NCBI GenBank assembly: GCA_032358255.1
Contig: JAULBX010031371.1
Span: 1-64,000, forward strand
DNA: 64,000 bases
Origin: Heterotrichella gracilis
Lineage: Eukaryota > Sar > Xanthophyceae > Tribonematales > Xanthonemataceae
Direction of reading: 5' to 3'
Shown here: one piece after another, positions 342 through 63,916 of the stretch
How positions within the stretch are numbered: position 1 is the stretch's first letter
Layout of the letters: every line of letters starts with the position of its first letter
Notes under the pieces: generated by a model
Told to the model about the DNA's origin: nothing
The model's database searches: none
What the model saw: the letters and a program-made list of their open reading frames with translations, nothing else
Program-made: the position numbers and the translations under genes

Positions 342-3300
342 GCGACGCCATCGCCATCGCCATGCCCATGACCCCCCACAGCGTCATCCTTTACCTGGGG
401 GTGGTACTGGCAGGGTGTGCGGTGGTCTCCATAGCAGACAGCTTTGCGCCCAAAGAGATTGCAGCTAGACTGAGGATTTCTGGTGCAAGGGGGGTGTTCA
501 CCCAGGATGTGGTTCGGAGGGGAGGAAAGGTGCTGCCCATGTACGAGAGGGTGGTGGCTGCGGGGGCGCCGGTGGTGGTGGTCGCGCTGCCGGCTGTGCC
601 TGGTGGGAAGCTGCAGGTGGGTGGTGGGGGAATGGGGGCTGGAGGTGGGAGGTGGGTGGTGGGTGGTGGGGGAACGCAGAGGTATGGAAAGGAATTTGGG
701 TCAGTAGTGGGTCTAATTGGCTGCGGTTAGGGAAATTTTGGGGTTCCGCTGGGCAAAAATCCCACAATGGGTGCCTTCCCAGTGCTTTTTGTGCCCATGC
801 ATGTACACTCCCCTGCTTAAATAACGCACAGGATCTAAAAACCTGTATATGCCGAAGCTCAACCAGCTGTTGATTGTCACCCCAATAGGAATTTCTAGGA
901 CCTAGGCTTTGGGAACAACGCCCTGACTGTGCGTGCAGGTGCCTCTGCGCCAGGGGGACATATCATGGCGGGAATTCCAGGGGAAGGCACAGGGGCGGGG
1001 CGACTTTCCCCCCTACAGCGCAGACGCCTATGAGGTCACCAACATCCTGTTTTCCTCCGGAACCACAGGTGCGACATCGTGCTATTCCCCCCCTTGTGCA
1101 AGTGTGTACCAATTATAAACAGCGGGCCATGGCACGCCACCCCTGCGGCTTGCAGCACAGAGGTCTAGACAGAAACGTTAGGGTCTCAGGATGCTAGAAT
1201 TCGGTTGGATCAGAACCCATTAATTGGGGGTGCATTTGCACTCAGCGTTCAGTGGAGCCTAGGGCACTAAAGTACAGCTTCAAAACGTCCACAAAGCAAC
1301 CAAGGCAGGTGCATGGCCACGAGAGTGAAAGCAAAGGATGCCCCTGTACCAAGGAATCAAAATCCAAAACTAATATCCCTTGTTTTTCTCCCCTTTGCAG
1401 GCGACCCCAAAGCCATCCCCTGGACCCACATCACCCCCCTGCGCCCGGGCGCAAATGCCTGGGCCCACCAAAACGTGACCCCTGGAAATGTGGTGTGCTG
1501 GCCCACAAATCTGGGGTGGATGATGGGTCCCTGGCTGGTGTACGCCTCCCTGTTGAACGGGGGCACAATTGCGCTGTACGAGGGGTCCCCGCTGGGGCGG
1601 GATTTTGGCAATTTTGTGGCGGCGGCGGGGGTGCATGTGCTGGGGCTGGTGCCCAGTATTGTCAAGGCATGGAGGGCCTCGGGGTGCATGCAGGTGGGTG
1701 GGGGGGGTTGAAAGGTATTACCATGCAGGTTCAAGGGGTTTGGGGGGTGGACACCAGGGGTTGCATCATCATTGCCATCAATAAAGTAATCACCCTAATC
1801 TGGTTTCTTGAACCCCACACCAGCACAAGGTTTGACCTGGTCCATGTCTTCACCGGTTGCCTGCACTGTTTCAGCTCTTCTTGAAGCACAAAATGTGACG
1901 TGCACCCCTTTCTTGATGCAGGGTTTGACCTGGCCCAGCCTGCACTGTTTCAGCTCCACCGGGGAGGCGTCCGCTCCCGAAGACTACCATTGGCTGATGG
2001 CACAGGGGGGGTACATCCCAATCATTGAATACATAGGGGGCACTGAGATTGGGGGCTCATTTTTGACGGGGTGCCTGCTGCAGCCCCAGACCCCCTCCAC
2101 ATTTACCACCCCCTCCATCGGGGCCACATTTGCGCTGCTGCAGGAGGGGCGTGAAATCAGCTGGCATGGGGCGGACGATAGGGCTATCACAGGGGAGGTC
2201 GCGGTGGGGGTACCCTTGCTTGGGGTGTCGCAGCGCCTGCTGAACAAGGATCATTACGAGGTGTATTATGAGGTGGGTATGGGGCAATGTTTTGTTGTGC
2301 ATTTCAAGGGCATCACCAGTGTTGCAATCAGTGCGCTTATATAAAGAGATACTGCACAAGGTGCATGATGTTTGGAGGTTGGTGGGAGAATGAGCCTGCA
2401 GGTCCATGGGTTGTCTTGCTTACAAGGATCTTGAAATGCATTTCCTTGCATTCTGTTAATTATTGCAAGGTGGTTCATGTGGGAATTGCCTGATGGCTCA
2501 TACATTCCAACGCACCCCACCCCCATCCAGCCTCACCCCCCCCACACACCTCCCCTCCCCCAGGGCATGCCCCCTGCCCCCCCGGGCGGCCCCCCCTTCC
2601 TGCGCCGCCACGGTGACGAGCTGGAGCGGCTGCCAGGGGGGTTCTACAGGGCGCTGGGGAGGACGGATGACACCATGAACCTGGGGGGGGTCAAGGTGGG
2701 TGGCGGTGATGGCTGTGAGGAGGGTATATGTGAGGAGAAGGCTGTGTATTGGTTTCCACTTTTGAGATTGTTTGAGACATACGCACACCCTGCCGGCTGT
2801 GGTGTGTATAGTCCCGTCAGGCCTATCCATGCATCTTACACATGGATACATCGTACACAAATAGCGTCTCTGCTGCAGGCTTGACCCTGCCGGCAAGTGT
2901 CAGTGACCACACCAAAGGTGGCACAATTCTCACCCCCATTTGATTAATCCACCTCTTGACCCCAAACTCACCCCGCTCTACAGGTCAGCTCAGTTGAGAT
3001 CGAGCGCGTGTGTGTGGCGCATGTGGCGGGGGTGGTGGAGGCGGCTGCCATTGCGGTCAACGATCCAGGTGAGCACACCCTGGCACAAACCCTAGCACAA
3101 ACCCTGACGGTGGTACTAACAGCCAACACATTTGTTGCTGGTACATCGTCATGTTGTGCACGCAACTGCATGGGCCGCCCACATACCAAATGGTCCTGGT
3201 ACCCTAGCTCAGACCCTAGCACAAAGCCCGACAGCGGTCTGTGTAGTGCGTGCAATTGCATGGTCCGCGCATTTCTGAATTTACCCCTCCCACCCCCTAT

Positions 3301-4896: not shown

Positions 4897-7053
4897 TCAT
4901 GGCTGCGCCGCCAGGTGGTAGTAGCACGACCAGAGTGCGCATAGGAGCACGACTGCCCCACCCACCACATGCAGTCGAGTCATTGCCGCGCACCTGGCCC
5001 ACTGGCGCTCCACCTGTGGGGTTGAGGGGGTGAGGATTAACCATGGGTGAAGGGCTGCATAGCGCGGGCACGGGGAATATGATAATAATACGACCTTTTA
5101 ATATCTTATCACCTTTGGGAAGGACGACGAGAATCGGGGCCAGCATGAGAGATACAGATGCATCACAGGGCACAGCATGTGCACACATAGTGGTACATCA
5201 GCACTTGCCCAGGGGGCTGACAATTGTCAAACAAATAAACCACAGATGAAAGTTGCAGGCAATTCCTTTGCCTTCATTTGCAACAACATCCTCAGCATCC
5301 ATGCAAGCATTTCATTCGCGAGTATTTCAATCATTCAACAGGAGTCCTCCCACGTACCTCCACAGTCGCCGCATGACACACATCCCGCCCCGCCCCCGCC
5401 CCGCCCCCCCTCGCCAGCCACCCCCTCCGGTCATGCACCTCCCGCACACAGCTCACCACCACAACAACCAAGTGGCACAGTATGGCAAGGGAGGTGCGCG
5501 TAATGATACAGCTCCCGTAGGAGGGGAGGGGAGGCGGCGCCTCCCAGGCCCCATGCTGTAGGGGCTTGAATGCCGTGAGGACCCAGAAGGCCGCATTCTG
5601 CATCGCGCGCAGCAATTTGGGCTCCAGGGTGTGCACGCAGGGGTCCAAATGCTGCTGGACGGCCTCGCAGTGCGCGGGCACCAGCCGCAGCACGTCGTTC
5701 ACCCCCGTGGCGGCCACCAGGGGGAGCAAAAACCCTAGGTTAGGGCGCATGAACAGCGGCACGGTCAGCCGCACAAACACGGTGGCGTGCACCACAAGCT
5801 GGACGAAGCTGCGGGCACAGGCGGCGCCCGCGACCCTAAACCCTAGCCCCTCGAACCCTAGGGCACCCCGCTTGTTGCTGTACAGGTGGACTACCCCGGT
5901 GGTGTGCTGGCTCAGGGCAAAGGTGCAGACCCACAGGGAGGCCACTAGCCAGTCCCGGCCGCGCGCCCAGCCCGCGGGGTGGCGGGGCTGCAGAGGTGGA
6001 AATGTACGTGAGCATGGGTATGGATCTTTTGGCATGTGAGGCAGCATGATTATGTGGAGGCACATGAGCTTACGCTACAAGTCTGTGGGCACTTAAGAGC
6101 CTGCATGTGGTTATTTGAGGGTAAACAGGGTACACTAGCACGCTGGTGCAGGCACACATCAAGGCCACCAGTTAGTCCCTGCCGCGCGCCCAAGCCGCGG
6201 GGTCGGTGAAGGGAGAGGGTTCATGTGTTAGGGGTTTCGGGGTGCATTTTGGTACGAGGGGTCACAGACACCCTGCTGCAGGAGGTGAATGGATTTGTGG
6301 GGCCAATGCAGCATGCAACACATGGGGAAGGTATGTGTGGGGCGTGGTGCAGACCACATGTTTGGCAGCTGGTGTCCTGCTAAATTCTGAACCCAAAACC
6401 CTGAACTGGGTCAGTGCGCCAGTTGCTCGTGTTCACAGTGGGCTAGCTGCGCTGGGTTTAGGGTTTAGGGTTTGGGTTTAGGGTTAGGGTTTAGGGCTGG
6501 GTTCGACGGTACCTTGGCTAAAGCGTTGGCCGCGAAGAGTGTGAACTGGAACAGTGCTGCGGGAGTGGCAAGAAGGGCGGGGGGTTAGGTATCTATTGCC
6601 TCCCAGGGGTGAAGGGCTGCGATCCGGACCAACCATAGGTGTGTGTCTTTATGAAGTACTGTGACACACCAAAGGATGTACTAGTATACAAAGGTAGGAT
6701 GTTGGCATACCCTAATACTGTATAGTTCCACCTAGTGGGTCCCTTTCATCCTAAAAACCAACTTGTACTGCCCACAGTTGTATATGCATGCATATGCTGA
6801 CCGCCATGCAGGGCTCGCCCACCCCTGCAGCCTCACCTATAACGGTCGTGGTAGCCACTACAGCCGGGTTTTCCCGTTGGCTGATCCCCAGCATGGGCCA
6901 CACCAGCACGGCCGACACCAGCAGCGTGCACGCATCCATTCCCCGCATCGCCCCCCACCGGTCCACCTGGTATTGCTCCTCCAGTTGCGCGTCGCCAAAG
7001 GCCAGCAGCCGCGGCCGCCGCTTCCACAGCGGCCGCCGCCTGCCAGCAGACAT
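4897..7053 (-). CDS. Multi-pass membrane protein of unknown function
   Basis: Four minus-strand exons: 7053-6837, 6556-6513, 5987-5358 and 5013-4897 (TGA). The total is 1008 nt, 335 residues. Phases agree at every junction and donors are good (for example GAG then GTACGT at the end of the long exon). The N-terminus is basic, followed by FGDAQLEEQYQ and a hydrophobic segment. The long exon has several hydrophobic stretches (WLVASLWVCTFAL, FLLPLVAATGV, LAILCHLVVVVV), and the last exon encodes a final membrane helix just before the stop. I do not recognise the family beyond a resemblance to uncharacterised algal membrane proteins with an F-x-D-x-x-LE-x-x-(Y/F) N-terminal block. The start at 7053 is the best ATG after a possible acceptor; an upstream exon is possible. 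Confidence 0.68.
6157..6205 (-). repeat. Intronic echo of the long exon's 5' end
   Basis: Repeats, with substitutions, the stretch at 5935-5985 that encodes the start of the third exon (gccgcgcgccca core). It sits in the intron just upstream, so it is another partial exon copy. Confidence 0.6.
6452..6497. repeat. Interstitial telomere-type repeats (TTTAGGG variants)
   Basis: Run of five to six TTTAGGG, TTGGG and TTAGGG units inside an intron of the membrane-protein gene. Other clear clusters are at 9540-9560, 11157-11190, 17565-17592, 34942-34966, 38215-38275, 41023-41045 and 60140-60215. Confidence 0.9.
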
Positions 7054-14629: not shown

Positions 14630-17600
14630 TCAAGGGTTTTCATCTAGGGTGTAGGCGCCGGCCAGGCGCCTGCGGCGCCCACTGGCACTCACCCCCGCCG
14701 CAGGCGCCGCAGCGGGTGCACTCCCAGGAGCACCACCAGCACCAACTCCCCTTGCTGCTGCTGCTGCTGCTCCCAGTGCTGCTGCCGCTGCCGCGGGCGC
14801 CGCTGCTGCGATCTGGTCGCATGACTTGCCGTAGAGGGAGGCGGAGTAGTAGGACTGCCACACGCCGCAGTCGATGGAGTACTTGACGCCGCCGTCGTCG
14901 GTGCTGTTGCAGACCGAGCGCGGGGCCTGGGGGGTGAGGGGTGGGGGGCTTTTAGTAAGGATTTTGGGTTTTGCGTGTTTGGGGTTTAAGATGTTTTAGC
15001 AGGGTTTAGGGTTTATGATTTAAATCAGGTATTTTGTTGCCCCCACAGCCGGCGCTGTTGCAAATTGTACAAGGGGCCTGGAGGCGGGGGAGGGGGGGGG
15101 CTTAGCAGGGTTTTGTTAGGTTTTTAACGGGTGGCACAGCAGGAAAGCCTTTCTACTCTGATTCCATTTCACATTCAGGCCCTCAATCCCCCAACTTACC
15201 CCACAGTTGTTCTGCAGTGGGCACTGGCCCCCCTTGAGGCAGCACTTCTGGAGCGCTGCGTTGAAGGAGAAGGAGGTGCATCCCGCGGCGGTGGTGCACG
15301 CCATCTGGCACTGGGTGAGCGTCACATTGGTGGTGGAGCACTGGCCGCTCTGGGGGTGCAGGGAACAGGGATGAGAGGAGAGGGGTGGGCCCGTGGGGGA
15401 AGGGAGGGTACTATGCCAGGAACAGACTGCTCTGGAGGGGGCTAAATCATTATTGGGTTGTGGCTCACTGTTGGGTGGCTAACCATTGGTGGCTAACAAA
15501 CATACACATGCAGTCAAGTGGATAAATTGATCTCTCAGTGACGACCTTTGCCTGCAGTGATGTCGAATCGCGGCCAACCCTTTCCACGACTCACGTCATC
15601 CCACAAAGCCAAACCCACCGTCCTTACCCCAGGGTCCCACCCCCCACTCACCAAGGTTGCATTCCTGGCAGACTCTGGCGGTCTGGTGGGTACCTTGAAC
15701 CTTGGGGTCACTGGCCTAGTGCGCATATGACTCCATGCGCGCATTCCAAATGCGCCCGAGGGGTCATACACCATCCAGGCAGATAAATCCAGGATTCAAG
15801 GTACCCACCAGACCGACAAATCTACCCTAGCCACACATCAGGAGGCTCCCACAAATACAAAGGCAAAACCCCCCCTTCCCCCCACACGCCACCACCAAAC
15901 TCCACCTCCAGTGTTCTTCCCCCCACCCATCGAGGTTGCATTGCTCCCAGAGAACGCGGCCGTGGGGCCATACACGTACCCACGCCTGTGACCCCAAAAT
16001 TCACACAAATCGGACCGCGAGTTCAACCTTCACCACACACCAGCTCTCACCAAGACAAAGGCAAGCCCCCCATCTCCCCCCCGCCACAATCCCACCTCTG
16101 GGTTTCCATCCCCACTCACCGAGGTCGCATTGCTGCCAGAGAACGCGCCCGTGGGGTCATACACATACCCAGGCGCGTCCTGCGGCCAGGGGATATCCAC
16201 CCCCGCCACACAGGACGCTCCTTCATCCTCAGTCTTGAAGGCAACGCTGAGCGCGTTGAGGGCCCCCATGTCGGGAACGCATTCCTTCACGCCATCCCCC
16301 TTGTACCCGTAGAAGCACTTGCACTGGAACCCGCCCTTTGTGTTGAGGCACGCGGCGTTGTTCGCGCAGCCGGCGGTGCCCCACACGCACTCGTTGATGT
16401 CGATGTCGCAGTTGGGGCCGGTGTACCTGCATGCCGGGTTAGGGTATTGGATAGGGTTTCAGTTGGGTACAAGCTTGTAACCAATCTGGGTTGGCTGCTG
16501 GGCCAAACCAGATGTCTAGGCTTTTGAATAGAGAAGGAAACACAGGGCAGGGTAGATAGCAACAGCTAGGCTATGCACTGCAATGCAGTGACCCACACGC
16601 ATGCTTTTCTGTTGCTGTTGCAGTCGGGCAAATGACCTGAAAAGTGCCACCACATACAAAGACAATTCATTCATGGATAATCCATAATCACGCACCCGGT
16701 GTCCTTCACCCCGTTCACCCATGTTGATGAGCAATCCTTGATGGACACGCCCTGCACTGCCTTGGGAGCTGGGCAACCAGCGATAGGCCCTCCAGTGAGC
16801 CCCGCCACCTGTGAAGGGGGGAAATATGTGATTAAATATTATAAACAGATACATAAACACGCTCCCCACCACAAGTATGAGGGCATTGGTTGATCTCAAG
16901 AGACAAAGTGAGAAGAGCCAGCCTTGCAGGCTTGCCATTCCCCACCATCAAGGTGGATGGTGGGGTTTGGAGAGGCCATGTAACCATAAACATGGCAGGG
17001 GTTGCCACCAGGGTTTGATGTAATGTAAATAACTGGGTAACCAAACATTGCCATAGCCCTAGCCCTGCATTAAACCCTACCCAAGGGTTTCCTTACCTGC
17101 TTGGAGAAGTCCTTGATGATGCCATAGGTGGAGTCCTTGCCATACACCCCGTACAGCCCCGCACCCCCTCCCTGGCTGTTGGGTGCTACCTGGCCATCGT
17201 AGAAGTTCTGCCAGTAGAGCACACCCTGCGCAAGGGTTTTTGCACACGGTGAGGAAAACCCTACGTTATAAGAGCATTGCAGGGTGTGCCGGAGCAACCC
17301 TGGCAGTGGTGTTTAGGGCAATGAGGAAACCCTAGGGGTGGGTTTCAAGGTGCACAGATTTGGCTACAGGGTATTTTGCAGTTGCAATACCCCAAGCTGA
17401 AGTAGTACGATGGCCAGGTTGCCCACAACAGCCTGGGGTAATTCAACAGCAGAAATGACGCTCGCGTCTAGAAGAACAGTACCAATGACTCCAGCCAAGA
17501 CTGAGCCGCTGACAAATGATTGGTTGAGATCCCAGTCTAGGCCGTCTTGTAGTATGCGTCGCGGTCTAGGGTTTAGGGTTCAGGTTTAGGGTCCTCGACC

Positions 17601-20600
17601 TACCGTGATTGGGTCGCTTGCCTTGATCCCCGTGAGCACCTGGTCGTATGCTGCCTTGTAGTATGCATCACGGTCCTCCTGGTACTTGCCAAACTCCTCT
17701 AGGAGGACCTGCATATATTAGAGTAAAATTTAGGGTTTTCATCCTGATTAGGAGTTAGGGTTCCTGTCCAAGCTAGGGTTTGACGTCCGCGGTTCTCCTG
17801 GTACCTGCCAAACTCGTCAAGGAGGACCTGCGGGGTTTAGAGCAAGCTTTAGGGTTTTCATCCTGATTAGGGTTAAGGGTTTTGTCCAAGCTATAGGGTT
17901 TTACATCCGGGGTTCTCCTGGTACTTGCCAGACTCCTCAAGAAGGACCTGCAGGCCGTGGCCCACTTTGAATATGGTTTAGGGTCCAATCGGCAGGAGAT
18001 GGAGTAGGATCCAGGGTTTGATCACTAGCTGTAGGAATAAGGTAGGGCTTTCATTCCGCGCGCATGGATGCACTTTGCCTGTGAGCCCCTAAGCCGCGAC
18101 GGGTATGCAGTGCTGTTCTTTTTTGTCTGCTATAATGAGTATTATTCTTTGGGGCCTGGATAGAATTCTACGACTTGTTGGCACTCCCCTTCAGGACCCT
18201 GCCGCACTTGTAATGTGAGCTGCAATGAAGCAATGCTGCGGCCCTTCACCCATTGGGGTTCAAGCCCCGATTCCAGGGCTTCGAGCTGGAAAAAAGGAAA
18301 CCCTACGGGTTACAAACCCTTACCGGCTTGTTCTTGAGCTGCTTTGAGGCGTCGATGTGGCACTTGACCCACTGGGATTGGAATGCCTCCCCGCTTCCAA
18401 TGTTGCCTGGGTACTTGATCACACCCCAGTTGTCGGCCCAGGAGTGGAAGCTGCAGGAAAACATCCAAGGGGAGGTCAGCAAATTGACTCAGGTGAAATA
18501 TTACCCGCTCCCTTTTCCCTAGTACTAGAGTTGAGAGGGAGGGCTGCACTCATCAACATTTTTGTGGACACAAACAAAGTATATTTGCACCTACGTTATC
18601 ACAATTGATTAACAGATGGCATTGACTTTTGCCAGGCTGGACTTTTCGGCCATCATGCATGCAGGGTTCTCAAATCAATGCAATGCAATGCACTGTCAAC
18701 GGTTTAAGTTTTGTGTTGACTACCTGTTAAACTATTCAACAAACAATGCTTGCATTCTGGCTGCGTAACTTAAAATCCACAACCCAGAGTTACCGGAAAC
18801 AAAAACATATGGGGTAATTACAATCCCAACAACTAATTACTTACGCTCCAAAATCGATCGCATCCGATGAGTGGTCAGCAATGAAGTCCTGGCCCACATT
18901 AATTGGGAAAGCGCTCCCCACGCCATACTGGGGATTGCACACCGCGTTCCCTTGCCCAAAGAATCCGTCCTCTCCCACAGTCAGCAGCTGGTTAGGGAGT
19001 ACGGTCTTCACATAGGGCGCCACATCTTTCACCCAGGACTGCACACAGCAAGGGGGTTGGTGAGTGCCAAGGATGTAGTCTCTAGGGGAAACAAGGTTCA
19101 GGGTTTTAAACCCTAACTTAGGGTTAAAATTTGCGGTCTCCACATAGGGTGCCACATCTTTGACCCAAGACTGCACACACAGCAGGGGGGTGGTGAGTGC
19201 CAATATAACATGCGTTTATGGTCATCAAATTGAGGTCAAGAATGTGAAGATATCAAGGTCCGGGGTTTGGAATTAGGGTCTACGGTCTTCATGTCAGGGT
19301 GCAGTATCAAAGTAAGTAGAGGGAATATGACATTTAGATGTGGGTGCCACCCTAGCAATCCCTCTGGTTCAGGGATCTGTGAAGTAGCTGCCGAGCTTGA
19401 ATGCGCTGAAGCACGGATGGGGTGTCCCTGCCTCAGCACGACCAAACTCAATACCTACTTCACAGTGCCAAGAACCAGGACAGGATGGATCGCTGCGGGG
19501 GCACGCACACCTGTGCCTTGGTGGAGGGTTCAAGGTTAGGGTTTGAGGTTCATGAATAGGGTTTATAATTGAGGCAATGGTCTGTACGTAGGGTGTAACA
19601 TCAGTCACTTAAAAGCAATGTGGAAAGGGTAGTTGTAAGGACATTGGAGGTATTACGGGACATTAGGGATGTTTTGGACTAACGCGTAGGGAATTAGGGT
19701 AATGGCAAACGTCTCAGAACGCTACAAATGTGGGTGCCACCCCAGCAACATCACTGGTTTAGGCCAGCGTACACCAACCAAGGAGGGTGAATATGCTGAG
19801 GCGGTGTAGGGTATCACTGCTTCAGCACAACCAACCCCATGGGATGGTGGAAGTTGCCCAGAAGGAGTGGGATTGCTGGGGTGGCACCTGCATCTGTGCT
19901 TAGGTGGAAGGTTGGGATGTTAATTCAAGACCACAGCCTTTACGAGCAAGCAACATCAGCCACAGGACCGCACGCAAGAAAAGAGCGTGGGAGGGTAATC
20001 GCAGGGCATGCTAGAGGTTTTGCACACCCTAACTAGCTACATTTCGTCCTAAAACCCCAGTCAAGCTTTTTGTGGCCAACCCTACCCAGGGTTTCCAGCC
20101 CCCCCTTACCGCAATCTCCCCGTTGGTGCAGTTCTCACACCTGGGCTCGTTGATGAGGTCCCATGCAAGGATGGTGGGGTCGTCCTTGTACCTGCACCAG
20201 GGTTTGAAATAGGGTTTTAGGCTTGTGGTTTAGGGGTTAGGATATAGGGTTGCACAGGTGATGAGGTCCCAGCATGATGCAAGGATGAGTGGGGTTGTCT
20301 TGTACCTGCACAACAAAATTGGCTATGGGTGTAGGGTTTAGGGCCACACAGGTGATGTGGTCCCATGCAAGGATGGTGGGGTCGCTCTTTTACCTGCACC
20401 AGGGTTCTGGACTATCATTTAGGGCTGACAGGTGACGAGACCCATGCAAGGACAGGTGGGGTCGTCTTTGTACTTGCACCAGAGGAATGTGCTAGGGTAC
20501 AAGTGAACTCTTGCGCTCTGGTTTGGGTCTGAGCATCCTTTACAGTGTTGTATGGGATGGTGATGTCCACTTATAAAAACAGGATGATGTGAATAACTTA

Positions 20601-23600
20601 ACTACACTTTCATGCAGGTGATGATGTCACCCAGGCACCATCATAGGACCTTATATCTAAACAGCTAATGAACCCTAAACAGGCAGCTGTACTCGGATGA
20701 TGTGTCTGAGGTGTTGTTGAACTTACTAAATTTCCCAGGCACTGAGAAACCTGCGCCGTACGATTGCCACAATGACAACTGTCTGGTGCAGGATCTCATT
20801 GTCAGCGGAATCTAATACGCTCACCAACGCCTCAAAGTTCAAGCACAGCTGCCTGTTTAGGGTTTAGGGTTCAGGTTCAGGCCTCAGGGGTTAGGGTCAA
20901 CCATTCAGGGTTTAGGATTCCAGCCACTTATTTAGGGTCTAGAGACAGTGTTCACGGTCAGGGGTTTCGAGTCCAGGGGTAATAGTCCAGGGTTCAAGGA
21001 CCAGGGTAGGGTTTCCGCTTATGCGCACCCCGTGTAGATGTTGACCCTAATGACCAGCACCTTGACATATTCCTTGATACACCTTATAAGGGGCTAGGGA
21101 AGGTTCTTCATCACGCACGCGCACCCAGGCCTCAGGGGTTAGGGTTTAATGATCAGAGTTTAGGGTTTCCACTTATGTGCGCCTCGTGGAGATGTTGGCC
21201 CTGTTGGCCAGCACCTGGGCATAGTCCTTGTACACCTTAGTAGAGCCCAGGAAACAAGTGTTCATGGTCAGGGGTTTTGATTCCAGGGCTTAAGAGTCTA
21301 GGGTTCAAGGTGCAGGGTTTAGGGTTTTCTGATCACTTACGCGCGCCCCGTGTAGATGTTCACCCTGTTGGCTAGCACCTTGACATAGTCCTTGTACATC
21401 TGCCTGGCAGTGGGATCGGTGTAGAAGTCGTTGTGGTTCTCCTTGCCAGCCCATTTTACGTATTCGTCTATGGACCCGGTGGATCCCCAGTTGGTTGTGA
21501 GGGCCAGGATGACCTTGAGACCGCGCTTGCGTGCCTCATTTAGGGCGTAGTCCAGGCCGCGGAAGACATCCTCGTTGTACTTGCCTACAGATGAAGTTGG
21601 GAAGTAGTGGTGGGATGCTGGATATAGTAGGGGTGTAGGGTTGAGTAGGGGTGGGGTGTTGGGAGGCCACACAATGGGGGCGTTAGAATTTCTGAGGGAT
21701 TATGAGGGCTAGGATGACCTAGAGGCCGCGCTTGCGCGCCTCGTTGAATGCATAGTCCAGGCTGCGAAGACATCCTCGTTGTACTTGCCTGCAGGTAGAA
21801 TCACCGTGGTTGTGGGGTGAGGGGGGTAGGTGGAGTAGGGGTTGTGGGATTAGTGTGTGTGTGAGTGGAGAAGGCACACAATGGGGGGGTGACAAACTCT
21901 GAGGGGTTCAAAAGGTCAGAATGGCATTCAAGCCATGCTTGTGGGCCCTGTAGAGTGCATAATGCAGGCCACAGAAGACCTCCTGGTTGTAATTGCCTGC
22001 GGGTGGGGTGGGTCATTAGTGGGTGGTTGGGCGCGGGTACGGGGTTACATATTGGTGGGGATGGTGCCATGGCATGGTGGGAGAGGAATACGTTGTTATA
22101 CACCATACATATTGCTCTTTCACACAATGTTACCAGATAACACTGAATGTGCAGTACTACCCTTTCATGTCTGACACAGTACCCATGCGGTACCGATGCA
22201 GCACAAAAGGGGAGTTTCTGCACATTCAAAGTCATCTTGCTATATTGTGTGAAAGAGACATATGCATACAGCGTACTACCACAAGACTGTGCCACACTAA
22301 TCATGACAATGACACAACATAGTACACGCACACCCCCCCTCCCACACACAATGTGTAATCAGCACATGCGCCTTCCCCCCCCTGGACCCCTCACCTGGCG
22401 AGGTCTGCAGCGCAAACTCTGGCGACACCGCGTGTGCCCATGTGCGCACCACGTTGATGCCGTCGCCCTGCGCCTGGTCCATCACATTGCGCAGCAGCTG
22501 CAGGGGTGGAGTGTGATCGTGTGAGGAGGATGGAGAAGGGAGGATGGCAGATGCAAGGTGGGTGGGTGGGCATGAGGTGGCAGGAAGAAGCCAAGTGCCC
22601 AAATGGGGAGATGAGAGCTGAGACCTAGTAGTATTGTACAGATGACATCTACTTTGGTGTTTCCACACCCTACCCTAGCACGCATCTGAGGCCCTGTGAG
22701 GTGGGACCAGCATGTATGCAACAGTGAGATACAGGGTGTTGGCGCCAGACCTCAAATCTACCATATACCTAGACCCTAGACACTAAACCCTAACCCGCAC
22801 CTGGGGTTCTGTGAGGTTAAACAGCCCCATTCAGGTAGGGGGCGCCAGTGGCAGACCTCAACCCCATAATATACCTATACCCTAGACGCTAATTAGGGTT
22901 TAAGCGCAAGCCGCTTAATAGGAATCAAACCCTAAGCCGCACCTGGGGTCCCGTGAGGTTGACTGGCAGTGAAGCCCCGTTGAGGTAGGGGGTGCCGGCG
23001 CCGGACTCAACCACCTCCCACCTGCGCACCAGGCACAAATTGTGACTCATGAAAGGTGAGGATGATGGCCACGGCAGGAGAACAGGTGTCGCATCAAAGG
23101 TATTTGCCAAAAATAAGCGGCGACTGGGGTTAGGTAATTGGGGCTTGCCATGACTGGGTGTGGTTTTCTGGGGCGGATTAGCCACACCAGCGGGGGATTG
23201 CCCATGCTGAGGAATGGAGTCTGGGTGACACTGTGATGGAACCAGTGCAATGCAAACGGCGCAATCAGAGCATCTGGGTGCAATCATAGCATCATCATCA
23301 TGCAATGCATGCCACGCACTGGTTGAGGCCCGACACCAGAAACTCCTTGCAGCATGCGGAGAAGGCCCCATTCACAACCTCCACAAAGCACTCCCCGCTG
23401 CTGCTGCCGTTGCCAGCCTGACGGAGCTGCACATGCGCACACAGTGGAAACCCTTAGGGTGTTTGAATTTGAGAAACCTTGCTGCAGGCTGGCTGGTGCA
23501 GAAAGTGTAAAGGTTCACATGGACAGAACCCTTAGGGTGACTGCCAATTTAGCCTACTGCAGGAATGCATATGCCATCATTGAATTTCACATGGAAAGTA

Positions 23601-34610: not shown

Positions 34611-37600
34611 ATGCCCGCCACCGAGGTCGATGTGGTGCTGTTGCAGAAGCAGCCGCTTGAGGCGCTCTTCCCAGTGCTGCAGCGAGTCCCTGGGTGGGAG
34701 GAGGTGGGTTGAAAACCCTAGGTCCTAGCTCTGGTATCGTGATACCTGTAACCGTTCATCAACCTACCCACGGTTTGCACTTGAAGGGGTGGGGATAATG
34801 AAACGGGTGGGCTACCTCGTAACGCACCCTCGTGGCCCTACTAGGGTTTATCAAACCAGTCAGTGCGCGCTTTCAAACAGGCGGAAACCCGTCAATTTGC
34901 GCCACCCTATTGACGGTTGTTTTGACCCCGCCTGTTTGCACATGGGTTTAGGGTTTAGGGTTTAGGGTGGCAAATAGCACCCCGCACGCCACAAAACCCT
35001 GTGTCAGAACCCTCTGTCAAAACCCTATGTCAGAACCCTATGTCAGAACCCTGTGGCAAAACCCGATGTCAGACGCTGAAAAGCTGCTCGCTCCAGGCAA
35101 TAGGAACTGGCACCTATTGTAGAGCCAGCAATGCCCATGCAATGTATGCCCATTTGAATTGTTAAGGACTACCTCGGTGTGGGTTCCTTGTCATCGAATA
35201 CTTTGGGGCAGTTGCGCCAGGATGCGTTTGCACAGGGGTGGCTTATCATCTCATAAATTTACGCGAACTGCTCCGTACAGGGAGCGACTCACTCCATGTA
35301 ACCTTACCCCAGCACACTGTCCAAAGCACTCACTGGGCCACACCAAACCCCGCAGAAGACCTGTATACAAAGCTCGGGGGCATGGCCAACCTAGGGCTCT
35401 ATGTCGGTCATCCCATTTCCACCTTCTTGTTGCAGGCCACCCCCGCAGACGTCGATGTGGACCAAATCTCGGGTGCCATGACCAACCTGGTGTTCCGGTG
35501 CCGGTACCGGCGGGAGGGCGGCGACTGCTACGTGCTTGCCCGGGTGTTTGGCAGCAAGGGAGAGCTTTTTAATCGGGAGGAGGAGAGGAGGACCTTCATG
35601 GCGGTGGCCCGGGCGGGGCTTGGGCCAAAGCTGCTGGTGAGGGTGTGAGGGTGTGGGGTGTGGGGGCGCATGTGGAGTTCTGGGGCATTAGCTGTTGGTA
35701 TCCATATCGTTTGTTGATGGTCAGGCCAATTTCTTAAGCAAAGCAATTTTCCCATGGTGTTGATTGCTCGTGCTGATTTTTTCCACGTGGCCAGTGTGGC
35801 CTCGGGCCAAAGCTACTGGTGAAAGTGTGTGCGTGGGTGGGGGGGATGGGCATGCATGTGGGAGCCTGGGGCATCGATTATTATAAGTGGCTTGTGATGG
35901 CTCAGACAACCCACATAGGCTTCCAAAGCACCTCCATTGGGTGATTAGAGCACCTTGAGGTGAACAGCACGCCCCATGACTGTGAAAACCAAAACAATGA
36001 AGTGACCCAAGGTTGTGTTACCTCTTGACCACTGTCCCCTGCCATTACCCTAACCCTTCCCACATTACCCTAGGTGTTGTTCAAGAACGGGCGCATGGAG
36101 GAGTGGCTGTATGGCAAGGGGGTGACAGCAGAGCAGATGAAAGAGGAGGAGGCAGCTGACTGCATCGCCGCGGCACTGGCGCACTTCCACTTCCTGCTGC
36201 AGAAGAAACTGATCGAGGGAGGAGGTAAGGTCAGGGATCCCAGCATATGTATGGGGAAGTTTAGGGTTCAGGGTTTAGCTGCACTGGCGCACTTCCGCTT
36301 CCTGGTGCAGAAGAAGCTGAGCGAGGGAGGAGGTAGGCTCAGGAATTCCAGCATAATTCTCGGGGAATTGGCCGCGGGGGGTATTTATGGAGCTGCATTG
36401 CAGGCGGAGGCAACATGTAGCATCAGTAATGCATGAATGTGCGCAGGGCTGACTGCTCGTCTGGTGCATTGCTGCTTACAATGGCAAGGAAGGAGCCAAG
36501 CGCCTTGTAGCGCATTGGCATAACTTTGTATCTGCAAAACAAATCAGACATAAAAATTGGCATACATGGCATGTACCGTACTTTGTGTACAGTGCGTAGC
36601 TACAAAATAATGGTCCCGTTGTTGTTGGCGCAGGTGCTGGTGTGTGGCGGAGGCTGCGCCACTGGCACGCCACCGCCTGCCAGGTGGCGACACCAGAGGT
36701 GGCCAGTCAGACAGGGCTGCAGGAGCTGGGGGAGCAGGTAGGGTTTGTGGCGGGATGCCTAGTAGGGTTTGGTGGGTAGGGTGTCTGTCGTGTTCATTGG
36801 CAAGGTGTGCATTGTTCGCGGGTTGTGCAGGGATCAAAAGCTGGAGGTTCTCAGGATTTGAATTCACCAGCCGAATAACAAGATCCAGCCCCCTTTACCA
36901 GCTCCATGCTCTGGAAGCGAACTTGACTACCGCCTACCTCGCACGGCCATGTTTCTCCAATCCACATCAAATAATAATAATTACCCTGCCATGCGCAATC
37001 GACGCCCTGGAGGCGCACCTGACCAGCGCCTACCCCACCTAGCCGCCATACTCCTTCTCTAAATCAGAACCATTATACACATCAACACCCTGACTAAACC
37101 GTGTGCAGATCGACGCCCTACGGCGCATCTGAGCAGCGCCTACCCCACCTGACTGGGCTGCTGCCACAACAAAACCCTAACACAACAAAACCCTAATCCT
37201 CAAACCCCGCCCGTCGCAGATCGATGCCCTGGAGGCGCACCTGACCAGCACCTACCCCACCTGGCTTGGCTTCTGCCACAACGACCTGCAGTACGGCAAC
37301 ATGCTCATGTTTGATGAGTCGGTGCCCGCATCGCTGCTGGCGCTGGACACAAGGCCGGTGGACCTGGCCAGGGATAGTGGCGCCTCGGGGGCGAAACGGG
37401 GAGGAAAGGTAGGGGCCTTTACCGCACCATAAAGAACGATGCAGATTTGATTGAAAACATCTATAGGAAGATAAATTGTGAGGTGTATGTACATTGTTCA
37501 GTCATCCCCTGCTATTCAAATTTGGCAAATTACCTGCAGCGGGCTCTTTGTCATCATTCCATTGTACTGTTCCGTGCGCTTTTTCTTTGGACATGCAGAA

Positions 37601-40000: not shown

Positions 40001-51166
<11,166 letters not shown>

Positions 51167-53880: not shown

Positions 53881-53889
53881 AGCGTTGCC

Positions 53890-57050: not shown

Positions 57051-57076
57051 GTGCCCACCGCTAGGCCTGCGCCACC

Positions 57077-58080: not shown

Positions 58081-58449
58081 AGGATGAGCCTTGAGAATTG
58101 AGAAAATGTGCCCAAATCAAGGACAGGCTTCTAGGCAAGATGGGGCCCATGCCGGCAATAACAGTGTGACTCAACTGTACACAAACTGGCAATACAGTCA
58201 AGAAAGCATGCTTGGCCCAGTTGACAACTTGCAGGCTTTGACCAGTGTGAATAAAGCTTATGATCAAGCTTGCAAAAAGCTGTAAAAAACATCGCTATAC
58301 AAAAAGCAATACAGCAGCACGAAAACTGACACAACGACGTCGCGGTATTATTTAGGCTGATGGCATACCCCTGCCCCTGGAAATGTGTCGATGTGCGATC
58401 CGCAAGCAGGCAAACCTTCAAACTTCCACCAGCTTGACCTATACATGCA
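58081..58449. other. 3' flank of the O-fucosyltransferase-like gene
   Basis: Should hold the minus-strand 3' UTR and polyadenylation region. Open frames show no recognisable protein. Confidence 0.4.
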
Positions 58450-61400
58450 CTACATGAAATGGCCGCCCAATTTTGTCCACATTCTATCCTGAGCAATGGC
58501 GGTTGAAAAGCTAGAATCTTTAGTCCCAATGAAAAACTGCGACCTTGCTGCAATTTCCTGCTCAACCAGGGCAGCTACAAAATTAGACGGGGCTAGTTTG
58601 GAATGTTGAGTGACATATACTTTTGCATGGGTTCTGGTTTCCAAAAGAAGCTGCACGTTTGATCGGATGCTAGGCGGCGAGAGTAAAAACACCCTCGAAA
58701 TGTTGAGTTGTTCCATTTGCAAATTTACAGCATCTGGTAACCGCTTACTCAGATTGCTTGAATGATAATGACAATTCTTGTCCAGTGAATCACCCTCAAA
58801 ACCAATGTTCTTGCGCTCCCAATTGCGCATGCATGTATCTGGGAAAGGCCGCACATGCACCGCAATGTACCCTTCTGCCCCAAAAGTGCGGTCCACAAAA
58901 TCCTGAGCCGCTTGTTTGACGATGCCAGATTTCCGTAGCGCCTTGCATGCGTACACAAATTCACTTTGGCATGGCGTTCTGTCCCATCCCCGTCCCATAG
59001 ACCTCGTTTGATAAATCTTATCAACAAAGATGCCCTGCACATGTGGGCGCGACGTCATTGTGGGTTCACTTGCACAGAGCAATAAACCAAATGCATTTGC
59101 CAACTTGGCATTTACAGCAACATTCAGCCGTGCCTGTCAGAAGCATTGGATGCTGATAACACCTATATCGTTCAATTACCCCCAAAACCATCACTCCGCT
59201 GCTGTAGCCCAAACCTATGTAAATACAGTATCTAAAGATATCATTTTCAATGACCTTTTAGCAAGCGGAGTGACTTATTGAAGCACTCTCTCCGAACGTT
59301 TTTGTGAGCCCAGCTTGGTTTCTTGACTGCGAATGTCAACTAATATCTGTAAGTAACATGAATGCATACATGGTTCTAAGGAAGCAAAATTGTCATCGAA
59401 ATAATAAAGCACTGCCATGGTGTGTTTGTGTTTAATTTTATTACGTATTTCAAACTTTATTTTACTACCTAACTTAAAGTTCATGTTATTACACCACCAA
59501 ACCCTGTTTACTTCTACGAGTGTACTAATTTGTTCTTGTCCTTCGTGATTCCATCTTGGTCCAGGGTTTGAACATGTGCTTTCCCCATCAGCCCACCCAC
59601 CTGGAACACCAGCATTGCGTACTCATGCCCCAACACCGCCTGCTGCAGCCATTCCAGGCCCATTTTGCTGCATCGCTTGCACTCGCTCTTGTCGGTGCCA
59701 TTGCGCGGGGACTTCCAGCAGGAAGCAATGCTGGTGTTGATGGCACGGGCCGCGTCCAGCCCCAGGGCATGCAGCTGTTGGGGCTCGTACAGGGCGTGGT
59801 AGGCCTTGTCCGACGCAACTGCAGAAATTTTTGAGACAGTCAAGAAGGAGCCAACCCGGGAGGAGCCAGTCACCCCGGGAGGAGCCAACCCGGGAGGAGA
59901 CAGTCAAGAAGGAGCCAACCCAAGGAGCCAATTTTTGAGACAGTCAAGTGGGAGCCAACCCGGGCTGATTACAATGTTGGTGGTGTTATTGCAAGAATTC
60001 ATCTCGCTTACTAAAGCAGCTGCACGCGGTGGTTCACCACACTTGTCAAGGGTTGCGCAGTGCTGCATTGTGAGGCACGTGGTGAAACAGAGCTTTCAGA
60101 GGTGTGGGAACCAGGGCTTGGTAACATACCGCTATTACAACCTACAAACCCTAAACCCTACGCCCACCCGCACCTGGGTGGTACACCCCCACCCTAAACC
60201 CTAAACCGTAAACCCTAAGCCCGACCGCACCTGGGTCGTACACTCGCACCCCAAAGCTCCCATCCCATCCCCGTGCCTTCAGCTCCCCCGCTTCCACCAC
60301 CCGCACATACCCGTCCAGAGCCGCCCGGTCAAACGCGTCGCTGAACCCTACACAAAGGTTTTGACCCGAAACAGCAGTGGTGATAAGTGTAGAACGGAAA
60401 CAGGTAGAAGTTAGTGAGCCGAGTCCGGAGCATGGACCCAGTCGGTGCGGGGCTGCGCCTCAGTGCCACATTTCAACGCAAGCTCCAGTATAGACACAAA
60501 CCTGTGGAAGAGTACAAACCCTTTAGTAGTGGCCTAAATGGGGGGACCTTTAGGCCACCACTAAAGGGAGTGGAATCGGGGAATACTGGGGAAACCCTAA
60601 AGTGATGGGTACAAACAAGTGTGTTTGTGAAACACCAACAAAGAACCTGAAGCTCACCAAAGGTCTTGGAGTCATTGAGATAGCCCCACTCTGACCACAC
60701 GGGGAGGACCAGGGTTCGATTGAGCAGGTGGGCGAGCGCGGCACCCTCCTTGAAACCCATGAACTGGTTGTTGGGGCCGGCAAATGGGACCTTGAACAGG
60801 TAGCCCTGCATCATACACCCTTGTCAGGGTTTTCTGGCTGTGGATGTGTGGGCGAGGAAGTGCGCACATGCGTATCCCATAACAGGTAGCCCTGGGGGGC
60901 ACACCCTTGTGAGTTTTCTGAGCCGACGGCAGGGTAGTCCCTGCTTTGCTCAATGTTCAACGGACGTGAGGGTCTGTGCTCAAATTTGTGAGGGTGCACA
61001 TAGGCAGTGTGGTTAGCGTGGAATAGCAAGGAACAACACAAGTGCATTTAGGAAAGGTCTCAGCCTAGGGGTTCTCCAAGGGTGTGCTGCAAGGGGTGTG
61101 CCAGGACCGTCCACTTTCACAGCAACAGCGCAGTTGTGAGGACAGAACAGTGTCAAGGGTTGACAGGCAGCCACTGCTGAAGCAAGCACGCTGTGGCTCT
61201 ATGTGCAACCTGAAACTGCGAAAGAACCCAAAGACCTCGTTTTGAAAAGGCAGCAGGTAGTGCCGTGCATGAACACAGGCCTATGGTATATGCACATGCC
61301 GCAGACCGCAGGGGTGTGAATCAGAGGTTGTGCTAGGGGACCGTTCAACACCTGTTGACCAGTGTACACTCCTTGTGGTGCAACAGCACAGTCCTTCTGG

Positions 61401-62049: not shown

Positions 62050-63916
62050 ATGGGCACGGGGATCACCGCCGCCCTCACGCAGCTTGTGCAGCGGGGCATG
62101 GGGGCGGAAGCAGTGGGTGGTGGGGCGGTGTCGGACAGCGAGGCGGTGCGCAGGCTGTGCGAGGCGTTCCGGGTGCAGGATGTGGCGGGGCTGCAGGTGG
62201 GTGGTGGCGGTGACGAGGAGCTGCACAGCCCGAAGCGGTATCTGCAATGTGTTACTTCCATGTAATAACTTCACTCAAGCCCTCTCTGTGTCTTTCTTTT
62301 CCCATTCCCCTCTATCTCCCTCTCTGCCCCACCCCCTATCCCCCTTCCCCTATGCCGTACCCCCTTTGTAAGGTTTCCCACCCCACCCCCCCACCCCCAC
62401 CCCCAGGACGTCATGGATGCCCTCCTGCTCTCTGAAGCCATCTACAAGGTGATAGACGTGGGTGTGGACATGGCTGCCTCCTACCTCACCATCCTCAAGG
62501 GATACTTCCCCCCACAGCTGGTCACGCTCAAGAGCTTCCAGTGCGCACTGCCGCACGTACCGCACAGGTAACATATGTAATAATAACCCTAAATCCTAAA
62601 CCCTAGACAGCTGGTCATGCTCAAGAGCTTTCAGTGTACCCTGCCGCACGTGCCGCATATGTAAAAAGTGTACTAAGAAACCCTAAAGCCTAAACCCTAG
62701 ACAGCTGGTCACGCTCAAGAGCTTCCAGTGTGGCCTGCCGCACGTGCGGCACAGTTGAAAACCCCAGATCCGAGCCTTCAACCCTCAACGCTCTTAAGGG
62801 CTTTCAACATGGCCCTGCTATATGTGCCGCGTCAACAACCCATGTCCTGCATAGCTGGAACCCCACAACTCCCAATATGTTGGTCCACAACTGCCATGGC
62901 TGTATAGAGCCTGAGTAGGGGGGTTGATCATGCAGGGTTAAGCTGGCCGATGGCTTGGTTCCCTGCTGCCGCTGTGTTTATAAACCCTACAAAGGGATCC
63001 AGGGTTTAGGTGTAGTGCAGGGACACTTTGCCAACCCTAACCAGGGCACATCGCACCCATTCTCACAGGTATGCGTTAGCCGAGGGTCCCTGAGTCCCTG
63101 CTGGTTGTGTTCCTGGGCACCAAGCAGGGACGTTGTTTCCAACCCTAACTAGGGTGTTCCATCCCGCAGGTATGCCCTAGCCGAGGGTTCTGGGTCCCTG
63201 CTAGTTGTGTTCCTTGGCACCAAGCAGGCGCGCGACCTGACAGTGGACATCAACCTGTGGCAGGAGGCGCTGTGGAGCGATGTGGCGCAGGGCGAACAGG
63301 TGAGGAGGCACTTTGCCAGGGTTTTGGAAACTCGTGTAGTACGAACAAAGTGGATATATACCCGCCGCGGCTTGTATAACTAGTAGGGACCCTACGGAGA
63401 TTGCGTAGCATCCTGCAGCTGAGGTGTGCGGAGCATCTATGCCATATGCAAAAGTATGCGGTCCAGAAACGTTTAGGTGGGATGCAGGCGATGGTTGTCA
63501 ACTTTAAGCCCATCCCCATCCCCATCTTTTTTCCCATCCACTCCTCACATCCCCTTCTTGCAGTCCCTAGCGGCGGCGCACCGCGGGTTTGTTGGGCGGG
63601 CCAGGCGAATCCCTGTGGAGCGCCTGTACCTGCATGCACGGGAGAAGGGCTTGCGGCTGGTGCTGTGTGGTGCGTGAGAGGAGGGGCTCCGTAGCTAGTC
63701 ATTCTGTTACTTGCGTTGGGAAAACAGCCCGTTCTACGAGGTTAATTGCCGTGTTTTTCTGTACCTCATTTCCATACCCAGCCCCTATGAACCTCTCACA
63801 CCCTTTCTGGAGGCCACTTTCTAGGCGGCGCAGTTGCCATGTTCTGCACGCCGCAACTGCTACCATCATCCAAATTTCAGTATATCATTGCTTCACCCCC
63901 TCCATCTGAGAGTTGA
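62050..63916 (+). CDS. Lipase class 3-like protein, nucleophile position altered
   Basis: Exons: 62050-62196, 62407-62567, 63170-63299, 63564-63669 and probably 63813-63916, phase-consistent. The middle exons read as an alpha/beta-hydrolase of the lipase class 3 type: LLVVFLGTKQARDL, AAHRGFVGRARRIPVERLY, then GLRLVLCG. Joining to 63813 gives LVLCG-HFLGGAVA, where the family has GHSLGGA. The nucleophile Ser codon is TTT (Phe) at 63818-63820. The frame then stops at 63914-63916 before the expected Asp and His. It may be an inactive relative, a decaying gene, or the true exon may be elsewhere, possibly beyond the window. Two first-exon relics upstream show this gene's 5' end was duplicated. Confidence 0.72.
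62608..62757 (+). repeat. Two echoes of lipase exon 2 end
   Basis: The stretch 62516-62570 (LVTLKSFQCALPHVPHR plus donor) recurs at about 62608-62662 and 62701-62757, each preceded by ccctaaa...ccctagacag. Telomere-type heptamers separate the copies. Confidence 0.92.
63060..63128 (+). repeat. Echo of lipase exon 3 start
   Basis: Near-copy of 63163-63231 (acceptor, then YALAEGS...LLVVFLGTKQ), with a frame-breaking change (gtccctgag). Confidence 0.9.

What the first reader, a model, noticed from the sequence alone, without database searches (positions are those of the whole stretch)
1829..63128. Pervasive 'exon echoes': degraded copies of exon ends inside the adjacent introns
At least seven genes in this window (AAE, membrane protein, GH5, choline kinase, GCN2, O-fucosyltransferase weakly, lipase-like) carry intronic partial copies of the neighbouring exon end including the splice site, usually 40-90 bases long, often two or three in a row and more diverged with distance. 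Both 5' and 3' exon ends are affected. The copies rarely keep the frame. This is not an ordinary transposon pattern. It suggests repeated junction-spanning tandem duplication, possibly during break repair, and could be a route for creating or moving introns.
Basis: partly seen in the sequence, partly recalled or inferred. Interest (0 to 1): 0.88.

Follow-up and report, generated by a model that had tools for sequence, protein, structure and literature searches.

The report
Splice-junction tandem duplications in algal introns
In this green-alga-like genome many introns carry decayed extra copies of the neighbouring exon end, apparently left by small tandem duplications across the splice site, often beside telomere-like repeats; this lengthens introns and gives a way to study how introns grow.

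Summary
In 314 kb (window plus 250 kb from seven other contigs) I modelled 378 introns. Exon ends match their own intron at 64 of 756 ends (score 36 or more), against 0 of 2268 comparisons with other introns and 1 of 756 with the reverse complement. Of 58 stronger echoes, 56 align through the splice site. Sixty of 378 introns carry an exon-involving near-copy.

The pattern fits direct duplication (period 65-361 bp) across a junction, then neutral decay of the spare copy: pS 0.245, intronic part 0.21, pN 0.131. It is not introners, nor selected alternative exons as a class. The AGGT intron-birth signature is absent (0 of 378). Much of the exon-end bias is survivorship: uniform placement predicts 53-76% exon-involving copies; observed 82%.

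Unexpected: heptamers of the genome's own telomere repeat peak 10-40 nt inside both intron ends and go with echoes at that junction (odds ratios 4.5 and 6.4). Telomere-linked break repair is possible but unproven. No comparison genome or RNA was available.

The parts
1829..1877 (+). AAE gene: echo of the exon that starts at 1922, inside intron 1694-1921
   Evidence: 34/49 identical, score 48
6155..6203 (-). membrane-protein gene: echo of the exon bounded at 5987, inside intron 5988-6512
   Evidence: 40/49, score 62; not among the 378 introns because one flanking exon is 44 bp
15854..15908 (-). GH5 gene: echo of exon end at 16051, inside intron 15350-16050; the extended copy spans about 190 nt
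   Evidence: extended score 156; 39/55
16585..16628 (-). GH5 gene: echo of exon end at 16426
   Evidence: 33/44, score 44
17671..17953 (-). GH5 gene: tandem array, period 119, 2.4 copies, covering the acceptor at 17708 and two echoes in intron 17709-18323
   Evidence: TRF score 399; extended echo score 125; two echoes
18207..18260 (-). GH5 gene: echo of exon end at 18324
   Evidence: 39/54, score 45
19134..19170 (-). GH5 gene: echo of exon end at 19038 with telomere-like filler between the copies
   Evidence: 33/37, score 58; filler shown
20252..20482 (-). GH5 gene: three successive echoes of exon end at 20191 in intron 20192-21340
21007..21237 (-). GH5 gene: two echoes of exon end at 21341, other end of the same intron
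   Evidence: 49/56, score 84; second copy score 83
21730..21788 (-). GH5 gene: echo of exon end at 21584; a second copy lies further out
   Evidence: 52/60, score 85
22801..22846 (-). GH5 gene: echo of exon end at 22943
   Evidence: 38/54, score 48
35348..35399 (+). choline kinase: echo of exon starting 35436
   Evidence: 41/55, score 45
36278..36367 (+). choline kinase: copy of exon end 36170-36258 (called a short exon by the gene finder, probably an echo)
   Evidence: cluster score 92, identity 0.91
36899..37170 (+). choline kinase: successive echoes of exon starting 37220, in intron 36738-37219
   Evidence: 43/46 best copy, three copies
44302..44331 (+). GCN2: echo of exon end at 44254, donor GTGGGT also copied
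   Evidence: 27/30, score 48
46702..46761 (+). GCN2: echo of exon starting 46866
   Evidence: 51/60, score 84
60174..60198 (-). O-FucT gene: weak echo of exon end at 60231
   Evidence: 21/25, score 34
62514..62761 (+). lipase-like gene: tandem array, period 94, 2.7 copies, covering the donor at 62567/62568 and two echoes; AACCCTAAA-type motif inside the unit
   Evidence: TRF score 361
63069..63128 (+). lipase-like gene: echo of exon starting 63170
   Evidence: 53/60, score 89

Best explanation
Small direct tandem duplications (period 65-361 bp, median about 132) have repeatedly copied a stretch that spans a splice junction. One copy keeps working as exon end plus splice site; the spare copy, now inside the intron, decays without constraint. 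The exon half stays recognisable longer because its partner is held by selection, so what remains looks like an 'exon echo'. The same junction can be hit again, giving rows of copies, and each event lengthens the intron. Shown here: direct orientation, junction spanning, neutral decay of the spare copy, recurrence, longer introns, spread over several contigs. Inferred: origin by end joining of staggered breaks with fill-in of the overhangs. More speculative: telomere machinery (telomerase, or CST with polymerase alpha-primase) takes part, because the genome's telomere repeat is enriched near splice sites and between or next to the copies.
For: Alignments cross the junction in 56 of 58 echoes. 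Decay: exonic part 518/3227 mismatches, intronic part 370/1759; pS 0.245, pN 0.131, ratio 0.53, as expected if only one copy is constrained. Windows of score 44 or more: 472 direct within 500 bp, 118 direct at 3 kb, 35 inverted within 500 bp. Introns with an echo median 442 nt against 272. Echoes in 26 of 42 modelled genes, no significant clustering by gene. Second copies at 21 of 58 junctions, nearest better in 17 of 21. Telomere link: heptamers 23/kb in echo introns against 7/kb; donor-side echo with donor-side motif odds ratio 4.5, p 2e-4; acceptor side 6.4, p 4e-6; motif in 19 of 52 gaps between copies against 7 of 52 outer flanks. Whole-genome hits of a donor-like pattern plus TTTAGGG include closely spaced same-strand pairs: by eye 9 adjacent pairs 41-112 bp apart among the roughly 100 rows listed of 774 hits.
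Against: Thirty-three of 52 gaps hold no telomere-like heptamer, and 13 of 28 donor-side and 13 of 30 acceptor-side echoes have no motif within 60 nt of their junction, so telomere involvement cannot be general. The cross associations are also positive (acceptor-side echo with donor motif 3.9, p 9e-4; donor-side echo with acceptor motif 2.4, p 0.05), so the link is only partly local. At donors the motif occurs in both orientations, which the simplest telomerase model does not predict; near acceptors the CCCTAAA bias could reflect selection on splicing or branch sites. Only 11 of 49 gaps match the sequence next to the other copy at p<0.01, so contiguous tandem units are shown for a minority. 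Few very similar copies (3 of 57 with exonic identity 0.95 or more), so hardly any fresh event was caught. Part of the 3-kb control is not zero (118 windows), which I put down to repeated genes without checking each. No RNA, reads or relatives were available.
Confidence: 0.78

Rival explanations
1. Ordinary small tandem duplications fall uniformly over genes and nothing special happens at splice junctions; only the visibility of the exon half makes them look junction-linked. (Compatible with the best explanation; it differs on targeting and on the telomere link.)
For: Simulation with uniform placement and slower decay of the exon half gives 53%, 64% and 76% exon-involving copies for units of 80, 130 and 200 bp; exon-only duplications would mostly be removed by selection; purely intronic copies exist (13 introns; 33 of 150 clusters).
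Against: Observed 60 of 73 (82%), p 9e-4 against the 130-bp expectation, though close to the 200-bp value, which I did not test. Local association with a motif that itself sits 10-40 nt from splice sites. Intergenic DNA shows little: 4 of 150 clusters, coverage 1.46% direct against 1.32% inverted, but only 38 kb was called intergenic.
Confidence: 0.45
2. Intron birth by tandem genomic duplication: introns here arose from duplicated AGGT-containing exon segments, and the echoes are the traces.
For: Known mechanism (PMC3443670 and PMC2891723, passages); a junction-spanning case with a new intron is described in a potato gene (PMC4974935, abstract and results section read).
Against: First 30 nt of the intron against first 30 nt of the downstream exon, and the mirror test: 0 of 378 with 20 or more matches. 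One acceptor-side echo begins 11 nt after the donor (C189 intron 208), but its copied acceptor lies further inside the intron.
Confidence: 0.05
3. The copies are functional: alternative or mutually exclusive exon ends kept by selection.
For: Splice dinucleotides intact in 44 of 56 echoes; extension length a multiple of three in 24 of 56.
Against: pN/pS 0.53 fits one free copy, not two constrained ones; only 6 of 56 would be in frame and stop-free; splice-site positions in echoes vary about as much as their neighbours.
Confidence: 0.04
4. Introner-like or other transposable elements carry the copies.
For: Some introns match one another across genes over short stretches.
Against: All-against-all intron comparison finds 93 pairs; the 85 between genes are 63 nt or shorter, many of them with a few introns that hold telomere-like arrays (I did not inspect each); the longer ones are within one gene model in C13 that looks like a tandemly duplicated gene. 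The copied sequence is the local exon each time.
Confidence: 0.03
5. Assembly artefact (haplotypes or read errors laid in tandem).
For: Draft assembly of 903 contigs.
Against: Copies differ by 0-30% in the exonic part, 54 of 57 by more than 5%, with different constraint on the two copies; partial copies end inside exons; found on seven of the eight contigs sampled.
Confidence: 0.02

Closest known systems
Junction-spanning tandem duplication in the potato RdRp gene (PMC4974935; abstract and results section read)
   Same: Direct duplication that crosses an intron-exon boundary and carries the splice site and flanking intron with it.
   Different: There it made a new spliced intron, shown with RNA-seq and relatives. 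Here about one intron in six shows exon-involving copies, they look unused, and no new intron is demonstrated.
Small tandem duplications from fill-in at staggered breaks (CST, polymerase alpha-primase, end joining; PMC8355091, abstract and introduction read)
   Same: Direct orientation and small size; telomere-associated CST offers a link to the telomere-like motif.
   Different: Those are experimental events in human and mouse cells; enzymes cannot be tested here; many copies here are separated by filler or by sequence too diverged to align.
Interstitial telomeric sequences inserted at repaired breaks in mammals (PMC2246262, passages including its table 1)
   Same: Telomere repeat at an internal site, sometimes with duplication of flanking DNA (6 of 130 rodent and 4 of 25 primate loci in its table 1).
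   Different: Here the repeats are mostly short and concentrated 10-40 nt from splice sites.
Intron gain by tandem duplication of AGGT segments (Rogers model; PMC3443670, PMC2891723, passages)
   Same: Tandem duplication inside genes involving splice-site sequence.
   Different: Its signature is absent here (0 of 378).
Introners (PMC9860276, passages)
   Same: Genome-wide effect on introns; that paper reports finding them primarily in fast-evolving lineages such as green algae.
   Different: No shared element found here.

Membership tests
Small tandem duplications by break repair | copies in direct orientation, close together, small unit | tested here: met
   472 direct against 35 inverted windows within 500 bp at score 44 or more; period 65-361, median about 132
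Small tandem duplications by break repair | copies contiguous or separated only by filler | tested here: inconclusive
   gap 0-10 nt in 8 of 58, others with unduplicated filler; divergence blurs many edges (11 of 49 testable gaps match the flank of the other copy at p<0.01)
Small tandem duplications by break repair | dependence on end-joining and CST/polymerase alpha-primase | not testable with these tools
   needs mutants
Rogers-type intron gain | intron start resembles downstream exon start and intron end resembles upstream exon end | tested here: not met
   0 of 378 in both tests, control 0
Potato-type junction-spanning duplication | duplicated segment crosses the intron-exon boundary | tested here: met
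   56 of 58 alignments; 45 of 58 by 10 or more intron bases (counted)
Potato-type junction-spanning duplication | a new intron is spliced out | not testable with these tools
   no RNA data; 10 clusters where both copies overlap called exons are candidates
Introners | many introns share one element sequence | tested here: not met
   between genes only matches of 63 nt or less
Interstitial telomeric sequences at breaks | motif is the organism's telomere repeat | tested here: met
   TTTAGGG arrays within the first 10 bases of contigs C70, C140, C526, C609, C717, C770, C824 (other arrays in that list lie elsewhere on contigs); heptamers 7.6 and 2.9 per kb of intron against 0.7 and 0.6 shuffled
Interstitial telomeric sequences at breaks | absent from the orthologous empty site in a relative | not testable with these tools
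   no relative's genome is held
Alternative or mutually exclusive exons | copy under coding constraint | tested here: not met
   pN/pS 0.53 and 6 of 56 in frame without stop

The most novel reading that the evidence does not exclude
Splice junctions in this alga are preferred sites of DNA breaks that are mended with telomere machinery: overhangs spanning the junction are extended with telomere repeat and filled in by CST and polymerase alpha-primase, then joined, leaving a junction-spanning duplication with telomere-like filler 10-40 nt inside the intron. Introns would thus grow, and sometimes be reshaped, by telomere-type repair at exon borders.
Probability: 0.2. Interest if true: 0.85.

Novelty: new variant of a known kind. 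Interest (0 to 1): 0.6.

Why it matters
How introns grow and how their ends are renewed is mostly inferred from rare single cases. Here roughly one intron in six carries a datable duplication touching its own splice junction, with a built-in clock (constrained exon half against free intron half), so rate, size and decay of such events can be measured in one genome. The link to the telomere repeat at splice sites, which I did not see described in the listings of the searches, makes a specific repair hypothesis testable.

Tried and rejected
Self-BLAST of the window with a very loose threshold timed out; replaced by an offset scan. A first gene-finder setting predicted many spurious short exons; penalties were raised and the model retrained. 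The homologue search with an mTERF reading frame found nothing. The GCSH protein search placed the organism only broadly: the best-scoring named hits over the full length are Picochlorum, Coccomyxa and Myrmecia at 61-66% identity, with closer hits unnamed, so a trebouxiophyte-like green alga is my inference.

Considered and rejected as general explanations: AGGT intron birth, introners, functional alternative exons, assembly artefact, inverted or dispersed repeats. The whole-genome pattern counts are not used for orientation: patterns such as CCTGCAGG read the same on both strands, so donor-like and acceptor-like hits mix; they also do not prove that a hit is a splice site. The random-intron p values printed are not relied on, because the random pool could include pieces of the same intron. 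Paper searches returned no paper; the listings showed nothing on the point.

Rows dropped: 378 introns are those with both flanking exons 60 nt or longer and length up to 2000 nt; low-complexity windows were skipped; two of 58 echoes whose alignment did not reach the junction were left out, leaving 56, 49 of 58 gaps were long enough to test, and, 52 of 58.
Full report
SAMPLE AND GENE MODELS. The window is contig C876:1-64000 of a 68.5-Mb draft genome of 903 contigs. Its GCSH protein is closest, among named full-length hits, to Picochlorum, Coccomyxa and Myrmecia, so I take it as a trebouxiophyte-like green alga. I added 100 kb from C13, 100 kb from C189 and 10 kb from each of five more contigs, 314 kb in all, about 0.5% of the genome. 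No annotation exists, so I wrote and self-trained a gene finder. It converged on a donor consensus AG|GTGNG and an acceptor TGCAG|G, median intron 280 nt. Spliced window proteins match AMP-binding, Cellulase (GH5) with EGF and PAN domains (PAN just under its cut-off), Choline_kinase, RWD plus Pkinase (GCN2), O-FucT and mTERF in Pfam, so the exon calls are good enough for this purpose.

THE OBSERVATION. Direct near-repeats at offsets of roughly 50-400 are far above the level at offsets of 2 kb and more in the window and both 100-kb samples. In the gene-aware test the last or first 60 nt of exons were aligned to their own intron: score 36 or more at 31 and 33 of 378 introns, against 0 of 378 in each of six comparisons with introns of similar length, 0 and 1 of 378 with the reverse complement of the own intron, and 2 of 336 with the next intron of the same gene; exon middles give 2 of 137 and 1 of 147 where exon ends give 16 of 137 and 19 of 147. 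With score 48 or more, 39 of 378 introns carry an echo: 10 of 67 in the window, 29 of 311 elsewhere, none of 9 in L029. With a scan that counts any near-copy involving exon sequence, 60 of 378 introns do; 13 have intron-only copies, 2 exon-only, 303 none. Grouped without reference to introns, the near-copies form 150 clusters: 57 intron/junction, 31 exon/intron, 10 junction/junction, 1 exon/junction, 1 intergenic/junction, 33 intron/intron, 13 exon/exon, 4 intergenic.

WHAT THE COPIES ARE. For 58 echoes of score 40 or more I extended the alignment. 56 run through the splice site; 45 of 58 by at least ten aligned intron bases (counted). The period is 65-361, median about 132. So the copied unit is a piece of DNA spanning the junction, not an exon end as such. 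The exonic part differs at 518 of 3227 positions, the intronic part at 370 of 1759. Synonymous and nonsynonymous differences are 0.245 and 0.131 per site, ratio 0.53 (56 echoes). That is what one expects if the working copy is constrained and the spare copy is free: free positions carry changes from both copies, nonsynonymous ones mainly from the spare copy. Splice sites in the spare copy are neither clearly kept nor clearly lost; 44 of 56 still have the dinucleotide, but only 6 of 56 would give an open, in-frame extension if used. Hence the echoes as a class are decaying by-products.

SURVIVORSHIP OR TARGETING. Because the exon half decays more slowly, spanning duplications stay visible longer than intron-only ones. 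Simulated uniform duplications scored with the same detector give 53%, 64% and 76% exon-involving copies for units of 80, 130 and 200 bp; observed is 60 of 73, 82% (an earlier version gave 56%). So most of the bias needs no special cause; a modest excess, about 2.6-fold in odds at 130 bp (p 9e-4), remains but shrinks if true units are longer. Second copies (score 30 or more) occur at 21 of 58 echo junctions, more often than first copies (score 40 or more) at 58 of 756 junctions, though the thresholds differ; the nearest copy scores better than the farthest in 17 of 21. So junctions once duplicated tend to be duplicated again. Echoes are spread over 26 of 42 modelled genes without significant clustering by gene (p 0.56), although GH5 has 7 of 14 introns affected. 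Introns with echoes are longer (median 442 against 272 nt), consistent with growth by one or more units, although longer introns also offer more room for a match.

THE TELOMERE LINK. TTTAGGG arrays open at least seven contigs, so this is the genome's telomere repeat. Its heptamers occur in introns at 7.6 (CCCTAAA sense) and 2.9 (TTTAGGG sense) per kb against 0.7 and 0.6 in shuffles. In introns without echoes they peak 10-40 nt inside both ends: near the acceptor CCCTAAA-type is about 17 per kb at 10-30 nt and 0.6-1.9 beyond 80 nt; near the donor the two orientations together are 16-23 per kb at 10-40 nt and 3-7 beyond 80 nt. In echo introns the acceptor peak is four to six times higher (65 and 92 per kb at 10-20 and 20-30 nt). 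A donor-side echo goes with a motif in the first 60 nt (15 of 28 against 64 of 316; odds ratio 4.5, p 2e-4) and an acceptor-side echo with a motif in the last 60 nt (17 of 30 against 53 of 314; 6.4, p 4e-6); the cross associations are weaker but also positive (donor-side echo with acceptor motif 2.4, p 0.05; acceptor-side echo with donor motif 3.9, p 9e-4). Between copies the motif is found in 19 of 52 gaps against 7 of 52 outer flanks, and in 24 of 50 intronic parts of the working copy. In several well-preserved cases (L032 intron 359, C13 introns 149 and 163, C189 intron 211) the gap is a telomere-like filler that does not recur after the second copy, whereas in others (window 62568-63169, C13 intron 74, C189 intron 263) the motif is inside the duplicated unit. 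Non-echo junctions with the motif show a slight excess of sub-threshold similarity to their exon end (p 0.017). Against a general role: 33 of 52 gaps have no motif, and orientation at donors is mixed. The motif may also serve splicing (for example CTAAC-like branch sites, my own knowledge), which could explain its place near acceptors without any repair.

MECHANISM AND PLACE AMONG KNOWN THINGS. Small direct duplications by fill-in of staggered breaks and end joining are described, with CST and polymerase alpha-primase as the fill-in enzymes (PMC8355091, abstract and introduction read). Telomere-repeat insertion at breaks, sometimes with flank duplication, is described in mammals (PMC2246262, passages including its table 1; PMC6410037, passages). 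A junction-spanning duplication that made a new intron is described in potato (PMC4974935, abstract and results section read). The classical AGGT model (PMC3443670 and PMC2891723, passages) is not met here (0 of 378). Introners (PMC9860276, passages) are not met. My reading: recurrent small break-repair duplications across splice junctions, seen through unequal decay, in a genome whose splice-proximal intron DNA is rich in telomere repeat. What is shown is the duplication and its decay; break repair is inferred; telomere machinery is a hypothesis.

LIMITS. No RNA, reads or relatives; my own gene models, which fuse some neighbouring genes (for example O-FucT with mTERF); no other eukaryote could be run through the same test, so I cannot say that the rate is unusual. 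The 3-kb direct control is not empty (118 windows of score 44 or more, against 472 near and 35 inverted); I put this down to repeated genes such as the one in C13 but did not check each. Whole-genome pattern searches do show closely spaced same-strand pairs of donor-like site plus motif, mostly on contigs outside the sample (by eye, 9 adjacent pairs 41-112 bp apart in the roughly 100 listed rows of 774 hits; 4 pairs 103-286 bp apart in the roughly 100 listed rows of 521 hits).

Noticed in passing
introns of window, L001-L020, L029-L033: Telomere-repeat heptamers peak 10-40 nt inside both ends of introns, also in introns without echoes.
   Followed up: yes
window 26066-31096, 52350-52857, 55151-55965, 8497-8837: Several mTERF-like reading frames, some nearly intronless, some fragmentary, suggest a local mTERF family (Pfam tested on one; the others by eye); the homologue search with another of them scored nothing.
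   Followed up: partly
starts of contigs C203, C234, C301, C464, C580, C613, C694, C786 of the same genome: GTAAGT/(GTAA)n tracts on the minus strand about 45-85 nt from the contig start; could be a subterminal repeat or an assembly end effect.
   Followed up: no
L002-L003 (C13 introns numbered 87-100): What looks like a tandemly duplicated gene whose corresponding introns are still about 65-90% alike, useful for dating intron change.
   Followed up: no
window 14630-25537: GH5 cellulase-type gene with EGF and PAN-like domains; 7 of its 14 tested introns carry echoes, the highest count of any gene model in the sample.
   Followed up: partly
window 59826-59964: Tandem repeats of GAGACAGTCAAGAAGGAGCCAACCC type at the edge of the O-FucT exon.
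   Followed up: no
C354:137488-141032 (L021, L022, L025, L027): A second choline kinase gene in the genome, a possible paralogue for dating echoes.
   Followed up: no
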